Shown piece after piece: positions 448 to 17,208 of a DNA stretch of 40,234 bases; within the stretch, counting starts at the first letter, position 1; each line of letters opens with the position of its first letter. Position numbers and translations under genes: made by a program. A model generated the notes under the pieces. That model did not search any database, was not told the origin of the DNA, and worked only from the letters and a program-made list of their open reading frames with translations. Source of the stretch: Desulfuromonadales bacterium. GTDB lineage: Bacteria > Desulfobacterota > Desulfuromonadia > Desulfuromonadales > BM103. The stretch covers positions 1-40,234 of the forward strand of contig JAMONP010000033.1 of assembly GCA_027065695.1 (NCBI GenBank), in the 5' to 3' direction.

Positions 448-1092
448 ATGGGTTTTTATGAAAATCATGTTTTGCCGTTAATTATGGACGTGGCCCTTGC
501 CAGGCTGAAAGAGGATCGGCGGGAATTGATCAGGCAGGCGTCTGGAAATGTCCTGGAAATAGGTATGGGTAACGGTGTCAACCTGCCATTTTATACGAAT
601 TCAACGAAGCAAATTGTAGCGCTGGAACCCTGCGAAGCCGTTGTTAAAAAAGCAAAGCGGAAACTGCGTGCTTGGGCTGATGATGGGACATTGCAACTCG
701 GCGAGGAGAGTTATGACCTTGTTGTCGGTGGTGGCGAAAAGCTGCAGTTTGATGATAATTCATTCGACACGATCATTGCGTCTCTGGTCTTTTGTTCAAT
801 TCCTGATTCAACCACGGCTGCTAAAGAGGCCTTCCGAGTGCTCAAACCGGGAGGTAAATTACTGTTTTTCGAACATGTTAGATCACCGGATCAACTGATG
901 AGTCGTATTCAGAGTTTTGTCAATCCCTTCTGGAAAGTCTTTGCATGCGGTTGTTCATTGACATGTGATACTGAAACAGTCTTTAAGGAGGCCGGGTTCG
1001 ATTACAAGACGATCACGAAGTTTCGTAACCCTAAAATGTCCCCTCCGTTTACTGCCTGGATGATCAAGGGGCAGGCGACAAAACCGGTTTAG
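448..1092 (+). CDS. Class I SAM-dependent methyltransferase (UbiE/METTL7-like)
   Basis: A predicted 214-residue cytoplasmic methyltransferase. Motif I 'VLEIGMGNGVNLPFY' (about residues 35-49) is the SAM-binding glycine loop, followed by an acidic strand end 'VALEP' (motif II). 'FDTIIASLVFCSIPD' and 'RVLKPGGKLLFFEHV' are the motif IV/V region of the UbiE/COQ5 superfamily. The Methyltransf_11-like core with a Cys-rich C-terminal part ('FACGCSLTCDTE') resembles small METTL7-type enzymes, whose substrates in bacteria are mostly unknown. The ATG at 448 was chosen because AGAGG lies at a suitable distance upstream; a TTG at 418 would add ten residues without a ribosome site. It stands alone between the thioesterase fragment and the histidine kinase. 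The family is clear; the substrate is not. Confidence 0.85.
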   Translation: MGFYENHVLPLIMDVALARLKEDRRELIRQASGNVLEIGMGNGVNLPFYTNSTKQIVALEPCEAVVKKAKRKLRAWADDGTLQLGEESYDLVVGGGEKLQFDDNSFDTIIASLVFCSIPDSTTAAKEAFRVLKPGGKLLFFEHVRSPDQLMSRIQSFVNPFWKVFACGCSLTCDTETVFKEAGFDYKTITKFRNPKMSPPFTAWMIKGQATKPV

Positions 1093-13257: not shown

Positions 13258-13533
13258 GATGAATTCTCCTGAAAAAGTGTCGTTGTTTCACAGGGAGCAT
13301 GCGCCAGCAATGTAACATGTTCCCTTCATAGTCATTCTAACTCAAGATGTCTTTGTGTGCAGGCCAGGAAGTTGTCAGACTGTCCATAGCCAGGCTGTAA
13401 ATACGGCTATTTTGTCGTGGGGCTGTATTGTGAGAATATGCATGCGGCTTTGATGCACGCTGTCAAAGTCAAATGGGGTATTATTTAGATGGTCGGGCAA
13501 GCATTACAATTCATGAGCAATTGGAGAGATACC

Positions 13534-13944
13534 ATGGAAGAACTCAAACAATTTTTTTCTGCGCAGGATATTTTCGCGAAACATGTCGGAATCAAGCTTG
13601 TTGAGGTTACTCCTGGCTATGCAAAAACCAGTATGAAAATTGAACCTCACCATTTTAACGGTGCCAAAACAGTTCATGGCGGTGCCATCTTCACCTTGGC
13701 TGATTTTGCCTTTGCGGTTGCCTCCAACTCTCACGGTAATCTGGCCATGGGCATCAACACCAGTATTTCCTTTGTCAAAGCGGCAACCAGCGGGACGCTC
13801 TATGCTGAGGCCCAGGAGCAATCACTGAACCCCAAATTGGCCTCCTATTCGGTCCATGTTACCGATGATGACAAGGAAACGGTTGCTATTTTTCAGGGGA
13901 TGGTATACCGCAAGCAGCAGCAGATTATGGATAACAACTCATAG
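13534..13944 (+). CDS. PaaI-like hotdog thioesterase
   Basis: A 136-residue hotdog-fold thioesterase of the PaaI/YdiI group. The hallmark 'HFNGAKTVHGGAIFTLADFA' runs from about His40 to Ala59, with the conserved 'HGG' at 48-50 and the likely catalytic Asp57. The family hydrolyses acyl- or phenylacetyl-CoA thioesters; the substrate here cannot be told. The ATG at 13534 has GGAGA upstream and gives the usual length; in-frame starts at 13489 and 13513 lack a site. It is the last gene of ordinary base composition before the AT-rich island. Confidence 0.85.
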   Translation: MEELKQFFSAQDIFAKHVGIKLVEVTPGYAKTSMKIEPHHFNGAKTVHGGAIFTLADFAFAVASNSHGNLAMGINTSISFVKAATSGTLYAEAQEQSLNPKLASYSVHVTDDDKETVAIFQGMVYRKQQQIMDNNS

Positions 13945-14266
13945 AAATGAACGGTGAATATGATACTGGTTTTACTTGTAGTCGGTTAGGATTCATCTAA
14001 CACCCACTGTGAGATCTGGTTGAGTTCAGCAGTAAGGAGTTGTCGCCATTTTCTTGTTTGTCAGGGTCAGTAAGGATTTTCCATTCAAGCGAATCTTGAG
14101 CCTGCAAAACAATGTGGGAGGATTTATAGTAAATCCGCGCTTTTGACCTCCGCTTCTTTTTGGAGTAGATTGAATTCTTCTTATTTGAGGATGTCATGCA
14201 TTAGGGCGAGTGACCAGCAGGCAACACTGACAATCTATTCTTTACAGTAAATTCTAGGGGGTTAAC
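13945..14266. other. Non-coding left flank of AT-rich island
   Basis: A 322-base stretch without a convincing gene. It holds a short imperfect hairpin GTTAG/CTAAC (about 13984-14000), the only terminator-like structure after the thioesterase. The minus strand has a 66-codon frame (13997-14197) with no ribosome site and no recognisable family. Just before the nuclease start is TAGGGGG, a possible ribosome-binding site. I see no tRNA end, integrase or clear flanking duplication. Confidence 0.5.
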
Positions 14267-16123
14267 ATGAAGCTTTCCATTGTCCTTGAAAACCTAAACT
14301 CATTCGAAAAGAATTCGCTTGTAAAAATCATCGACAATATTGTTTCGAAAAACCCTAAAAACTCTAAAGAAATCAGTAAATTACTTTCGGAGACAGAAGG
14401 CCCAGGAATTAAAAATTTAGATAACGTTGTTATATCTAAGATTTTCGATTTAATAAATGACGAGTACCTTGACCTTGTCAAAGAAGAATTCCTGAATGTG
14501 TCTTCTCAACTTGACATAATCACTGACATCATTATTAAAGATGGAAATTGCATACTAAAACTCGATTGGTTCTCAAAATTATACACCGAGAAATTGAAAA
14601 AATTGAATGCGAAGATAAAGTCTCTTCAAAAAGAAATCGTCAACCCTAAATCCGATATTACCGAACAAAAAAAGAGGGATTATCGGATTTACAAGTCTTG
14701 TGTAGACACCGCATTTCATAATGACATTGAGAATAATCGTGACCCAAAAATCACAGACGATGAACTATCAATATTATTAAAGCTATCAAGTGAACTAGAC
14801 TTGTCATTGGAAGAGGTAAAGTTAATCAACTATATGGTTCTTCCTGTAAAACAAATTGAAATTGATGAAATACTTAGTGAGTTAAAAAATATTGGCGTCA
14901 TTTTCCATTCGAAGAAAACAAACACAATTTTCGTCCCAGATGAGATTGTTAGGGTTTTAAGAGATATCAGAGAGAAGGAGATTGCTGACAAGTTTTTGAG
15001 GAGGGTGTTGAGAACCTTTAGGGACCCACAAATTAACCTGATATGTAAGAGACATAATATTGATAGAAAAATGGAACTGGATGCAAAGATTAAAGAAATA
15101 ATCAATGATGGCGTTTCTTTCTCTGGAATCCTGTCAAATTATGTCCATAAAGATGGGACGAGCGTTTCAGATATAAAGAAATTTCTGAATGAACTCTGGA
15201 GTAACAACCTCAACCAAAAAGGTTCCCTTGGCGGGTCAACCATTGGAGAGAAAATAGGCAATATCTGTTCATATTTTGACGAAATTGAACGTGATGAAAA
15301 GGTCCTTATTTCAATAGATGGATATGACAAACTCCTCTCTGATTTGGATGGGACGCTTCCTAAACTGAATGGACATGTGAAGAATGCGTTTGAACTACAG
15401 GAAGAGAATGTTCTTCAGAGTGATTTTCTCCTTGATTATAATATCAAACCAAGGGACATTTTGGATATTATAAGTCCAAAGGATTTAAGTTCTTTCTGTG
15501 ATTCTAGAGATATAAAAACAAGAGGAGATAAGATTGAGAACATTCTTGAAACATACAAAGATTCTGAAAATCTATACCTAGAGAATTACACAAATATTGG
15601 TTTCAGAAACTTGAATTTATTGAAGGAGAATGGGATTCGAATCAAGGAATCTGATTTAGGAGTAAAGTTTGAAGACCTCACAAAAACCATTTTTAAGGGT
15701 CTTGGATTTGATGTCGATGAAAAGCTAAGGAAAGAGATAAACACAAGTAAAGATAAAATGGATATTCTAATCAATCTAGGGAATAGAGAGCTAATCCTCG
15801 TTGAATGTAAAACTGTAAAAGAAAGTGGCTACAATAAATTCAGTTCCGTATCGAGACAGATGAAATCCTATGTTGATCTTGTTAAATTGAATGGATATCA
15901 AGTCATAAAGTCGTTGTTAATTTCACCAGAATTCACTGATGATTTCATCAATGAGACTGAGTTGGAATATGATATAAACCTGTCCCTTATCACGTCTTCT
16001 TCTATGGTTAAAATCCTTGATGCTTTTAAGAAGTCAAAGAAACACAAGAAATTCCCGTATAAATTGTTGATGAGAGATGTCCTCATTCAGGAAGACAGGA
16101 TAATTAAAGCTATCAGAAAATAA
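14267..16123 (+). CDS. AT-rich PD-(D/E)XK restriction-endonuclease-like protein
   Basis: A 618-residue protein I cannot assign to a named family. The C-terminal 160 residues look like a Mrr-type PD-(D/E)XK nuclease: Glu469 in 'VKFEDLTKTIFKGLGF', Asp499 in 'KMDILI', Glu513-Cys-Lys515 in 'LILVECKT', then Gln531 in 'SRQMKSYVDL', in the right order and spacing. Upstream, 'DILDIISPKDLSSFCDSR' followed by a 'GDKIENILE' helix resembles a SAP DNA-binding motif, and 'INLICKRHNI...AKIKEI' may be a second one. 'IDEILSELKNIGVIFHS...IFVPDEIVRVLR' looks like a winged helix. The N-terminus is helical and Lys/Glu-rich. Composition is strikingly AT-rich (17 and 19 G/C in two 60-base samples, 34 in ftsZ), pointing to recent transfer. 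A role in defence against foreign DNA is inference. Confidence 0.72.
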   Translation: MKLSIVLENLNSFEKNSLVKIIDNIVSKNPKNSKEISKLLSETEGPGIKNLDNVVISKIFDLINDEYLDLVKEEFLNVSSQLDIITDIIIKDGNCILKLDWFSKLYTEKLKKLNAKIKSLQKEIVNPKSDITEQKKRDYRIYKSCVDTAFHNDIENNRDPKITDDELSILLKLSSELDLSLEEVKLINYMVLPVKQIEIDEILSELKNIGVIFHSKKTNTIFVPDEIVRVLRDIREKEIADKFLRRVLRTFRDPQINLICKRHNIDRKMELDAKIKEIINDGVSFSGILSNYVHKDGTSVSDIKKFLNELWSNNLNQKGSLGGSTIGEKIGNICSYFDEIERDEKVLISIDGYDKLLSDLDGTLPKLNGHVKNAFELQEENVLQSDFLLDYNIKPRDILDIISPKDLSSFCDSRDIKTRGDKIENILETYKDSENLYLENYTNIGFRNLNLLKENGIRIKESDLGVKFEDLTKTIFKGLGFDVDEKLRKEINTSKDKMDILINLGNRELILVECKTVKESGYNKFSSVSRQMKSYVDLVKLNGYQVIKSLLISPEFTDDFINETELEYDINLSLITSSSMVKILDAFKKSKKHKKFPYKLLMRDVLIQEDRIIKAIRK

Positions 16124-16524
16124 ACTAGACCGCTGGTAGCAACTCTGAATCACGTATTGAGTTAAGTTGGCATCGTCATCTTTGATTTGCTCCGTAGGGG
16201 ATGGACATGATTGGTAGATTGAGGAGCAATTTAGAAACATCCACTAACCGCTGTTGTCGGCTTAATTGCTGGCCAGCGATTTTTTGTTTATGTCTCTATT
16301 TTTCAACTGTCTTTTGTTGAGAGAATCTTAGGAAAGAAAATGACATGAAAATACTCAATCGGCTATTGAGTCGCTGCGGAGAGCTAAGCAAAGACAACAC
16401 AAAAGTTACTCTTGCCTGTTCGCTGCGGTGGAAGTGGTTATGAAAATTTATCTGGGATTGGGAAGTTCTCTTGAATTGCAGGGTGACTGAGACAATAGTT
16501 AGTCATGAGAGGTGTTGGCAAAGA
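16124..16524. other. Spacer between nuclease gene and parDE
   Basis: About 400 bases with no recognisable gene. It contains a terminator-like hairpin at 16264-16286, a 7-bp perfect inverted repeat ACTCAAT/ATTGAGT (16353-16359 with 16365-16371) and a 9-base direct repeat TCGCTGCGG (16371-16379 and 16420-16428). Decayed coding sequence is possible but cannot be identified. Confidence 0.5.
16264..16286 (+). terminator. Candidate terminator after nuclease gene
   Basis: AATTGCT and AGCGATT pair (one T-G wobble) around a GGCC loop, followed directly by a T-run. It lies about 140 bases after the nuclease stop. Confidence 0.45.
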
Positions 16525-16553
16525 TTGACAATTGACAAAGACTGCCATAGGAT
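16525..16553 (+). promoter_or_regulatory. parDE promoter candidate
   Basis: TTGACA at 16525-16530, 17 bases, then TAGGAT at 16548-16553. A second TTGACA begins at 16532, giving a tandem ATTGACA-ATTGACA at 16524-16537. The signal ends 32 bases before the parD ATG. The ParD dimer would be expected to repress here, but no clear operator palindrome is visible. Confidence 0.5.
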
Positions 16554-16585
16554 GCTTAGGTGATTAGTATGGAAAGGAGACAGTC

Positions 16586-16819
16586 ATGGCCACAATGAAT
16601 ATATCTCTGCCAGGGCAGATGAAGGATTGGGTTGAAGAATGTGTACATTCAGGGCGATACGCCAACTCCTCGGACTATGTGCGGGATCTGATAAGAAGAG
16701 ACCACATGAAGTTGGAACAATTACGACAAGCCTTGATAGAAGGTGAGAACTCAGGGCCCTCTACTGAGTTGGATATAGAAAGTTTCATTACAGAAAAGAA
16801 AAAGTCCTTGTCCTTATGA
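16586..16819 (+). CDS. parD: ParD-like ribbon-helix-helix antitoxin
   Basis: A 77-residue antitoxin of the ParD/CopG-like (CC2985) type. The N-terminal 'MNISLPGQMKDWVEECV' strand-helix and 'RYANSSDYVRDLIRRD' form the ribbon-helix-helix that dimerises and binds DNA. The polar C-terminal half would wrap and neutralise ParE. AAAGGAGA precedes the start. The stop overlaps the toxin ATG in an ATGA junction, typical for toxin-antitoxin operons. Composition is poorer in G+C than the core genes, fitting transfer together with the neighbouring nuclease gene. Confidence 0.9.
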   Translation: MATMNISLPGQMKDWVEECVHSGRYANSSDYVRDLIRRDHMKLEQLRQALIEGENSGPSTELDIESFITEKKKSLSL

Positions 16820-17109
16820 GGAGAATCATTTTCTCCCCCAAAGCAAAGGCGGATCTGTCACAGATTTGGGATTATACATATACTGAATGGGGTGCTGAGC
16901 AAGCCGAGAAATATATTCGTGAACTGTGGGCTGTAATTGAAGAGCAATCCTGTGATCTCACAAAATCTGTAGATATAAGTGATGTGAGAGAAGGCTACAG
17001 AAAGGTAATGTCAGGTTCTCATATGGTTTTTTTTAAAGTAACTAATGGTGGAGTTCTTGACGTAGCGAGGATATTACACCAGAAAATGGATTTTGACAGG
17101 CATCTTTAA
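16816..17109 (+). CDS. parE: ParE/RelE-superfamily toxin
   Basis: A 97-residue toxin of the ParE family. 'FSPKAKADLSQIWDYTYTEWG' and 'AEKYIRELWAVIEE' make the N-terminal helical hairpin, and the C-terminal 'GYRKVMSGSHMVFFKV' and 'VLDVARILHQKMDFDRHL' are the beta-sheet strands and end common to ParE proteins. ParE toxins poison DNA gyrase; RelE relatives cut mRNA, and the sequence favours ParE. The start overlaps the antitoxin stop. The gene looks complete. Confidence 0.88.
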   Translation: MRRIIFSPKAKADLSQIWDYTYTEWGAEQAEKYIRELWAVIEEQSCDLTKSVDISDVREGYRKVMSGSHMVFFKVTNGGVLDVARILHQKMDFDRHL

Positions 17110-17113
17110 TCCA

Positions 17114-17141
17114 TTGAGTGTGTCAGTGACACAACACTCAA
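17114..17141. terminator. Nested palindrome after parE
   Basis: TTGAGTGT (17114-17121) pairs with ACACTCAA (17134-17141), and the overlapping GTGTCAGTGACAC is itself a palindrome, so two alternative stems are possible. It is 4 bases after the parE stop and converges on acyP. No T-run follows, so termination is unproven; a recombination or protein-binding site is the alternative. Confidence 0.45.
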
Positions 17142-17208
17142 GACGCGCCATATAAGCAGTGATCTACAATTCCACCTCTCATTCCAGGACACCATTTTTT
17201 CTCATAAG

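What the first reader, a model, noticed from the sequence alone, without database searches (positions are those of the whole stretch)
14267..16123. Unassigned nuclease with SAP-like and winged-helix-like parts
The C-terminus has an ordered PD-(D/E)XK set (E469, D499, E513-x-K515, Q531), as in Mrr-type endonucleases. The 460 residues before it fit no family I know, but show one good and one weaker SAP-like segment and a winged-helix-like segment. A large DNA-binding module fused to a nuclease, with no methyltransferase or helicase beside it, would suit a stand-alone defence protein or a modification-dependent endonuclease. The residues are seen; the function is inference.
Basis: partly seen in the sequence, partly recalled or inferred. 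Interest (0 to 1): 0.72.

Follow-up and report, generated by a model that had tools for sequence, protein, structure and literature searches.

The report
Mobile single-gene Mrr-type nuclease family
This gene makes a large protein whose tail looks like a DNA-cutting enzyme of a known bacterial defence type and whose front part is uncharacterised; it turns up alone in unrelated bacteria and prophages, so it is probably a one-gene guard against foreign DNA whose function has not been tested here.

Summary
The ORF is real: 618 aa, 33.5% GC in a ~48-56% GC window. E469, D499, E513-x-K515 and Q531 are invariant in 12 of 12 full-length relatives. The C-terminus belongs with the Mrr catalytic domain: 1 of 9 members passes Pfam's Mrr_cat cut-off and 5 more match below it; a profile alignment to nine real Mrr domains gives 106 columns, E 6e-5, far above its controls. 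SAP-like, winged-helix-like and TerB-like parts have only weak support. No structure could be predicted (tool off).

The family is rare and sporadic (0 of 57 other relatives). It spans Bacteroidota, the window's phylum and Pseudoalteromonas, and occurs in four viral contigs and in two islands with SIR2-HerA, type IV restriction or CARF genes. Other copies, the window's included, have no known defence gene beside them. The protein is under strong purifying selection. It equals PHROG 34709, 'unknown function'.

Most likely: a stand-alone Mrr-type (type IV-like) nuclease with a new, large sensor region. Nuclease identity is well supported, defence rests on context, the trigger is inference. New variant of a known kind; interest 0.5.

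The parts
14267..16123 (+). CDS of the 618-aa protein (member of PHROG 34709)
   Evidence: PHROG 34709 over residues 1-616, E 2.3e-108
15662..16012 (+). Mrr_cat-like PD-(D/E)XK nuclease domain, residues 466-582; E469 at 15671, D499 at 15761, E513 at 15803, K515 at 15809, Q531 at 15857
   Evidence: Pfam Mrr_cat at residues 466-519; profile alignment over residues 466-582; residues invariant in 12 of 12
14735..14863 (+). TerB-like motif, residues 157-199 (weak)
   Evidence: profile comparison 26% probability, E 7e-4; 40 column shuffles at most 2.7%
14843..14962 (+). winged-helix-like segment, residues about 193-232 (weak)
   Evidence: sub-threshold Tfb2/TrmB hits in 4 of 10 members, none of the window type
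15011..15115 (+). first SAP-like helix pair, residues about 249-283 (weak)
   Evidence: by eye in the alignment; LEM at 249-263 in 2 of 10 members, E 0.12-0.13
15455..15562 (+). second SAP-like helix pair, residues about 397-432 (weak)
   Evidence: SAP_new25 at 405-424, E 0.03, 1 of 10 members; by eye
13275..17207 (.). variable stretch holding the thioesterase, this gene and ParDE; relative G002 has 177 nt here
   Evidence: G002 has the phosphofructokinase and acylphosphatase/ligA regions side by side
16586..17109 (+). ParD antitoxin and ParE toxin genes downstream
   Evidence: PF03693 E 4.4e-12 and PF05016 E 2.6e-14

Best explanation
A stand-alone Mrr-type (PD-(D/E)XK) endonuclease, carried as a single mobile gene, that limits phages or other incoming DNA. 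The C-terminal domain (about 466-582) cleaves DNA with E469, D499, E513 and K515 as its active site; this chemistry is inferred from the family and was not measured. The first ~440 residues are a DNA-binding and sensing region of a new kind, probably with a winged helix and two SAP-like helix pairs, that docks the nuclease on its target. The host needs no partner methyltransferase because the trigger is something its own chromosome lacks: most likely a modified base, otherwise a DNA structure made during phage entry or replication. Shown: nuclease family, conservation, single-gene mobility, carriage in viral contigs and in some defence islands. Inferred: cleavage, defence, trigger.
For: Mrr_cat over the Pfam cut-off in 1 of 9 C-termini and below it in 5 more at the same residues. 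Profile alignment with nine real Mrr domains: 64%, E 6.4e-5, 106 columns; N-terminal controls 0.1% and 0.3%, 30 column shuffles at most 0.8%. Active-site set invariant in 12 of 12. Sporadic: 0 of 57 other relatives, 1 of 394 further genomes of its phylum, 1 of 394 further genomes of the Bacteroidota sample, after two false hits were dropped. Four viral-contig copies, one on the opposite strand between head and neck genes at 38% GC in ~53% GC. Island neighbours SIR2, HerA, mREase_IV and CARF6 in L009 and L010 and a PDC-M48B protein beside L119. Strong purifying selection.
Against: No activity was measured and no structure could be predicted. The profiles are shallow. Three of nine C-termini, all of the Pseudoalteromonas type, show no Mrr_cat hit. 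No PADLOC model covers the family, and 9 of 10 neighbours scanned around five other copies, the window's included, match none. No known modified-base reader was found in the N-terminus.
Confidence: 0.62

Rival explanations
1. Strict modification-dependent (type IV) restriction: the N-terminal region reads a methylated or hypermodified base and the Mrr domain cuts nearby, as in EcoKMrr or MspJI. This is a narrower form of the best explanation.
For: Mrr_cat domain; no methyltransferase among the window's neighbours. A review lists Mrr_cat in EcoKMrr and MspJI (PMC3874153, passages); solitary winged-helix endonucleases are often 6mA-dependent and 87% of over 1,000 had no DNA methyltransferase gene within three genes (PMC11037411, abstract and section 15).
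Against: No known reader domain found by sequence. The same review says nuclease-domain similarity does not by itself dictate modification preference. A generic SAM methyltransferase gene lies two genes upstream of the L010 and L011 copies, though its Pfam hits are not DNA-methylase models.
Confidence: 0.33
2. Abortive infection: the N-terminal region senses infection and the nuclease then degrades host DNA as well, so that the infected cell dies.
For: Large sensor-like N-terminus fused to a nuclease; island neighbours of suicide type, SIR2-HerA and CARF, in L009 and L010.
Against: No second component is conserved next to the gene, so the protein would have to sense by itself; nothing tested here separates this from targeted restriction.
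Confidence: 0.22
3. A self-spreading gene of homing-endonuclease type whose nuclease serves its own insertion.
For: The gene moves alone: DNA similarity among Bacteroidota copies and the window copy ends within about 40 nt of the gene, and the flanking genes differ.
Against: No shared insertion site or motif was seen in the flanks (by eye and pairwise blastn). The copies lie between genes, not inside conserved ones, and Mrr-type is not a usual homing family (recalled).
Confidence: 0.06
4. A housekeeping or repair nuclease.
For: Strong purifying selection: pN/pS 0.058 is the second lowest of 13 genes shared by L010 and L011.
Against: Sporadic distribution, foreign base composition in the window and carriage in viral contigs.
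Confidence: 0.07

Closest known systems
PHROG 34709 (unknown function)
   Same: The same family over its full length: window E 2.3e-108, L120 E 4.5e-233, L119 E 5.9e-105.
   Different: No difference in extent; the PHROG carries no function, so it gives no role.
EcoKMrr-type type IV restriction enzymes (Mrr_cat, PF04471)
   Same: C-terminal catalytic domain with (D/E)..(D/E/Q)xK order and solitary action (motif from PMC3874153 passages).
   Different: The N-terminal ~440 residues match no Mrr_N model at E up to 10 in 10 members and are far larger than the N-terminal part of the Mrr proteins fetched, e.g. L071 and L076, about 300 aa in all.
MspJI family (SRA-like domain plus Mrr_cat)
   Same: Large N-terminal recognition part fused to an Mrr_cat domain (PMC3874153 passages).
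   Different: No SRA-type hit in the N-terminus; a structural test was not possible.
Winged-helix fusion endonucleases (PMC11037411)
   Same: Possible winged helix joined to a nuclease, solitary gene (abstract and section 15).
   Different: The winged helix here is unproven and the domain order differs from the PD-(D/E)XK-wH enzymes named in that abstract.
Shedu (SduA), single-gene nuclease defence
   Same: One protein, C-terminal PD-(D/E)XK nuclease, varied N-terminus (recalled).
   Different: No Shedu-type hit in Pfam or PADLOC scans.

Membership tests
Mrr_cat (PF04471) nuclease domain | Ordered acidic / D / (D/E/Q)-x-K active site | tested here: met
   E469, D499, E513, K515 invariant in 12 of 12; motif form from PMC3874153 passages
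Mrr_cat (PF04471) nuclease domain | Score over Pfam's curated cut-off | tested here: inconclusive
   1 of 9 C-termini over it, 5 below it, 3 without a hit; whole proteins 2 of 10 with a sub-threshold hit
Mrr_cat (PF04471) nuclease domain | Similarity along the domain, not only at the motif | tested here: met
   106 aligned columns, E 6.4e-5 for one comparison, controls at most 0.8%
Mrr_cat (PF04471) nuclease domain | PD-(D/E)XK fold | not testable with these tools
   structure prediction switched off
EcoKMrr-type enzyme | Mrr_N N-terminal domain | tested here: not met
   no Mrr_N hit at E up to 10 in residues 1-460 of 10 members
Type IV restriction enzyme | Cleaves modified DNA only | not testable with these tools
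   needs a biochemical or plating test
MspJI family | SRA-like N-terminal domain | tested here: inconclusive
   no sequence hit; fold not testable
SAP-domain proteins | SAP model over its cut-off | tested here: not met
   best is SAP_new25 14.3 against 26.3 bits, 1 of 10 members
Winged-helix proteins | wHTH model over its cut-off | tested here: not met
   Tfb2 at most 16.1 against 34.5 bits, TrmB at most 13.0 against 25.6 bits at 193-223
TerB (PF05099) | Profile similarity over the domain | tested here: inconclusive
   43 of 118 positions, 26%, above 40 shuffles; no Pfam TerB hit
Shedu (SduA) | SduA nuclease model | tested here: not met
   no hit in Pfam or PADLOC
Homing endonuclease gene | Conserved insertion site | tested here: not met
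   no shared flank motif seen in 15 loci by eye; similarity ends at the gene in pairwise blastn
Integron gene cassette | attC site beside the gene | tested here: not met
   strict search in flanks of 14 loci: none beside the gene; suggestive palindromes only at L004
PHROG 34709 | Full-length profile match | tested here: met
   residues 1-616, E 2.3e-108

The most novel reading that the evidence does not exclude
A one-gene defence system of a kind not yet described: a ~440-residue sensor (TerB-like, winged-helix and double SAP-like parts) that detects a feature common to foreign DNA, not a methyl mark, and drives an Mrr-type nuclease. Because the sensor reads a constant feature and not a phage protein, the protein stays under strong purifying selection and works in hosts from different phyla, which is why the gene can travel alone in prophages and islands.
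Probability: 0.3. Interest if true: 0.68.

Novelty: new variant of a known kind. Interest (0 to 1): 0.5.

Why it matters
It would put a function on a family that phage catalogues list as unknown (PHROG 34709) and add a portable single-gene nuclease with an unassigned sensor to the defence repertoire. An active-site mutant gives a direct test. If the trigger is not methylation, it would show a new way for an Mrr-type enzyme to tell foreign DNA from self.

Tried and rejected
Integron cassette. Short motifs and palindromes around the L004 copy suggested attC sites. A strict attC search within 900 nt of the gene in 14 loci found none beside it; the one hit, in L010, starts 618 nt past the stop inside the next gene. 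DNA folding against 200 shuffles gave z -2.6 and -1.8 for the two sides of L004, -1.5 for L006, +0.6 for L005, +1.0 for L007, -0.2 and -1.9 for the window's two sides (the last holds a terminator-like hairpin). Integron integrases over the family cut-off exist in 2 of 10 carrier genomes searched, G000 (one) and G532 (four), not on the gene's contig. Left as suggestive for L004 only.

TerB: one weak profile match, not claimed. SAP: only four real SAP domains were found in 198 genomes, too few for a profile, so compared by eye. A crude propensity prediction of secondary structure was not used.

Dropped before counts: two false hits, G175 (50 residues, in a gene that I read as accA) and G589 (61 residues, read as argS). 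Left out of the 12-row alignment: L005 (broken frame), L006, L008 and L013 (cut by contig ends), L007 (match ends at residue 211; integrase-core ORFs follow). The C-terminal Pfam scan used 9 of the 10 rows of A3 (L011 left out).

Literature: seven answered searches; none of their listings names this family, and 'phrog 34709' gave 0 papers. Papers seen: PMC3874153 (passages), PMC11037411 (abstract and section list; section 15); all others as search listings only.

Full report
The observation. The window holds an intact 618-codon frame at 14267-16123 (+). The gene is 33.5% GC; 2-kb windows clear of it are about 48-56% GC, so it is foreign in composition.

The nuclease. Scans of the whole window protein find no Pfam family over its cut-off, no PADLOC family, no NCBIfam family and no solved structure. 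When the C-terminal regions of nine members were scanned alone, Mrr_cat (PF04471) appeared in 6 of 9 at the same residues (window 466-519): over the curated cut-off in L030 (21.6 against 21.0 bits, E 2.5e-4), below it in the window copy, L002, L003, L004 and L029; 3 of 9, of the Pseudoalteromonas type, had none. Several other weak hits there are also PD-(D/E)XK families (SfsA, HSDR_N, NucS_C, NERD, Card1), but unrelated families appear too. As an independent test I took nine real Mrr_cat domains found in relatives of the host and compared profiles: 64% probability, E 6.4e-5 for one comparison, 106 columns, residues 466-582, against 0.1% and 0.3% for the two N-terminal parts and at most 0.8% for 30 column shuffles. 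The family profile is shallow (6 effective rows of 10, Neff 1.8).

The N-terminal 440 residues. Residues 1-460 of ten members were scanned with a permissive limit. Nothing passes a cut-off. Winged-helix-type models fall at about 193-232 (Tfb2 in 4 of 10, TrmB in 2 of 10) and 236-296 (eWH_GTF3C1 in 2 of 10), all in Pseudoalteromonas-type members; SAP_new25 falls at 405-424 in 1 of 10, the window's; LEM at 249-263 in 2 of 10. Unrelated families score equally well in the same scan. The alignment shows two helix-loop-helix segments with SAP-like spacing (by eye). Residues 157-199 resemble the TerB motif (26%, E 7e-4; best of 40 shuffles 2.7%). These labels are leads, not assignments.

Distribution and mobility. 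The gene is in the window's own genome and in 0 of 57 other relatives, in 1 of 394 further genomes of its phylum (G532) and in 1 of 394 further genomes of the Bacteroidota sample (G260), after two false hits were dropped. One pattern scan of genome contigs gave seven Bacteroidota MAG loci at 63-70% identity; plasmid records gave three Pseudoalteromonas; phage records none; viral contigs four, after a single-sequence scan found none. The window copy is nearer to Bacteroidota copies (67-70%) than to the other copy of its own phylum (59%). In the tree the window, G532 and Bacteroidota rows form one group against the Pseudoalteromonas-type rows, with four of nine inner forks unresolved, the window's place among them. 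DNA similarity among the Bacteroidota copies and the window copy ends within about 40 nt of the gene on either side, and their flanking genes differ. Among the Pseudoalteromonas copies the similarity runs further. In the window's genus the site is variable: in G002 the phosphofructokinase and acylphosphatase/ligA regions are 177 nt apart where the window has 3.9 kb with a thioesterase, this gene and a ParDE pair; in eight genus loci examined, apart from a 31-nt match in one, none matched that stretch, but they reach only about 0.5-1.5 kb to that side.

Company. L009 has SIR2 and HerA directly beside the gene (E 7e-178, 4e-155), then a SLATT-type protein and a type IV mREase (E 5e-210); L010 has CARF6 (E 2e-147) and the same mREase nearby. 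L011 has an HNH gene upstream with weak Cas9/PtuB-like hits. L120 lies between head-protease and neck genes of a prophage (Mu-like is my reading), on the opposite strand and at 38% GC in about 53% GC. L012 follows late genes, one of them a baseplate protein by PHROG; L013 has the same order by eye. L119, in a contig classed as viral, stands beside an MBL-fold protein of candidate system PDC-M48B (E 1.5e-100). L003 has a PDC-S01-type AAA protein downstream (E 1e-58). Against this, of ten neighbours scanned around the window, L002, L004, L005 and L030 copies, nine match no PADLOC model and one is a generic HTH protein; not every neighbour of every copy was scanned. Toxin-antitoxin-type genes lie near the window, L030 and L004 copies. 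L002 sits between genes that I read as rnfC and rnfD (recalled from sequence).

Selection. Between L002 and L003, 93.9% protein identity goes with pS 0.61. dN/dS is 0.026, 0.030 and 0.023 in three close pairs and 0.071 between L002 and L004; pairs with the window are saturated at synonymous sites. In the L010/L011 pair the gene's pN/pS, 0.058, is the second lowest of 13 shared genes (0.044-0.170; one of them compared in part). The N-terminal part is constrained like the nuclease.

Mechanism. The best-supported account is a stand-alone Mrr-type nuclease with a new sensor. Shown: nuclease family, invariance of the active-site set, sporadic single-gene transfer, carriage in viral contigs and in some defence islands. 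Inferred: DNA cleavage, defence, and the trigger. Modification dependence fits solitary Mrr and winged-helix endonucleases (PMC3874153 passages; PMC11037411 abstract and section 15), but no known reader domain was found, and the review says that nuclease similarity does not fix modification preference.

Novelty. The family exists in PHROGs as 34709, unknown function. No Pfam, NCBIfam or PADLOC model covers it at full length (two members have weak, partial PADLOC hits). That it is not described in print rests only on the seven searches listed in Tried and rejected, in an open-access library. It is a new variant of a known kind: a known catalytic domain with an unassigned sensor. Structure prediction, the obvious next test, was not available.

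Noticed in passing
window 16181-16285 (+) and about 14050-14222 (+); L036 2156-2260 and others: A dispersed intergenic element of the genus: 42 of 64 matches in 9 of 11 genomes fall on it (my count). It has promoter-like boxes, a ~105-nt conserved body and a terminator hairpin (14 copies aligned), with no Rfam match: it looks like a multi-copy small-RNA gene. The nuclease gene lies between two partial or whole copies.
   Followed up: partly
L036 2351-2558 (about): A second dispersed repeat: the other 22 of 64 matches of the same search fall on another part of the query, mostly its last ~80 nt.
   Followed up: no
G000:C76:3741-4682 (L050) and G532: The window's genome has an integron integrase over the family cut-off, with attC-like sites by eye beside it; G532 has four integrases over the cut-off.
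   Followed up: partly
L004 7709-7953 and 9850-10043: Imperfect palindromes of about 200-245 nt with attC-like ends on both sides of the gene; z -2.6 and -1.8. They could be degenerate cassette ends.
   Followed up: partly
window 13275-17207; L123, L125-L129: The stretch between rsmI/phosphofructokinase and acylphosphatase/ligA is a variable site in the genus, with different genes in different genomes; the ParDE module of the window (16496-17126) has an 88% copy elsewhere in G009.
   Followed up: partly
L010 11649-11859 and 20996-21206; L009: Inverted repeats of about 210 nt bound the Pseudoalteromonas island that holds the gene, and related copies lie in L009 (matches through L009).
   Followed up: no
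L002 5851-6216 and 12588-12944: A 23S_rRNA_IVP (four-helix bundle) gene, and by eye a second one, lie between genes that read as parts of an Rnf operon, where the nuclease gene also sits.
   Followed up: no
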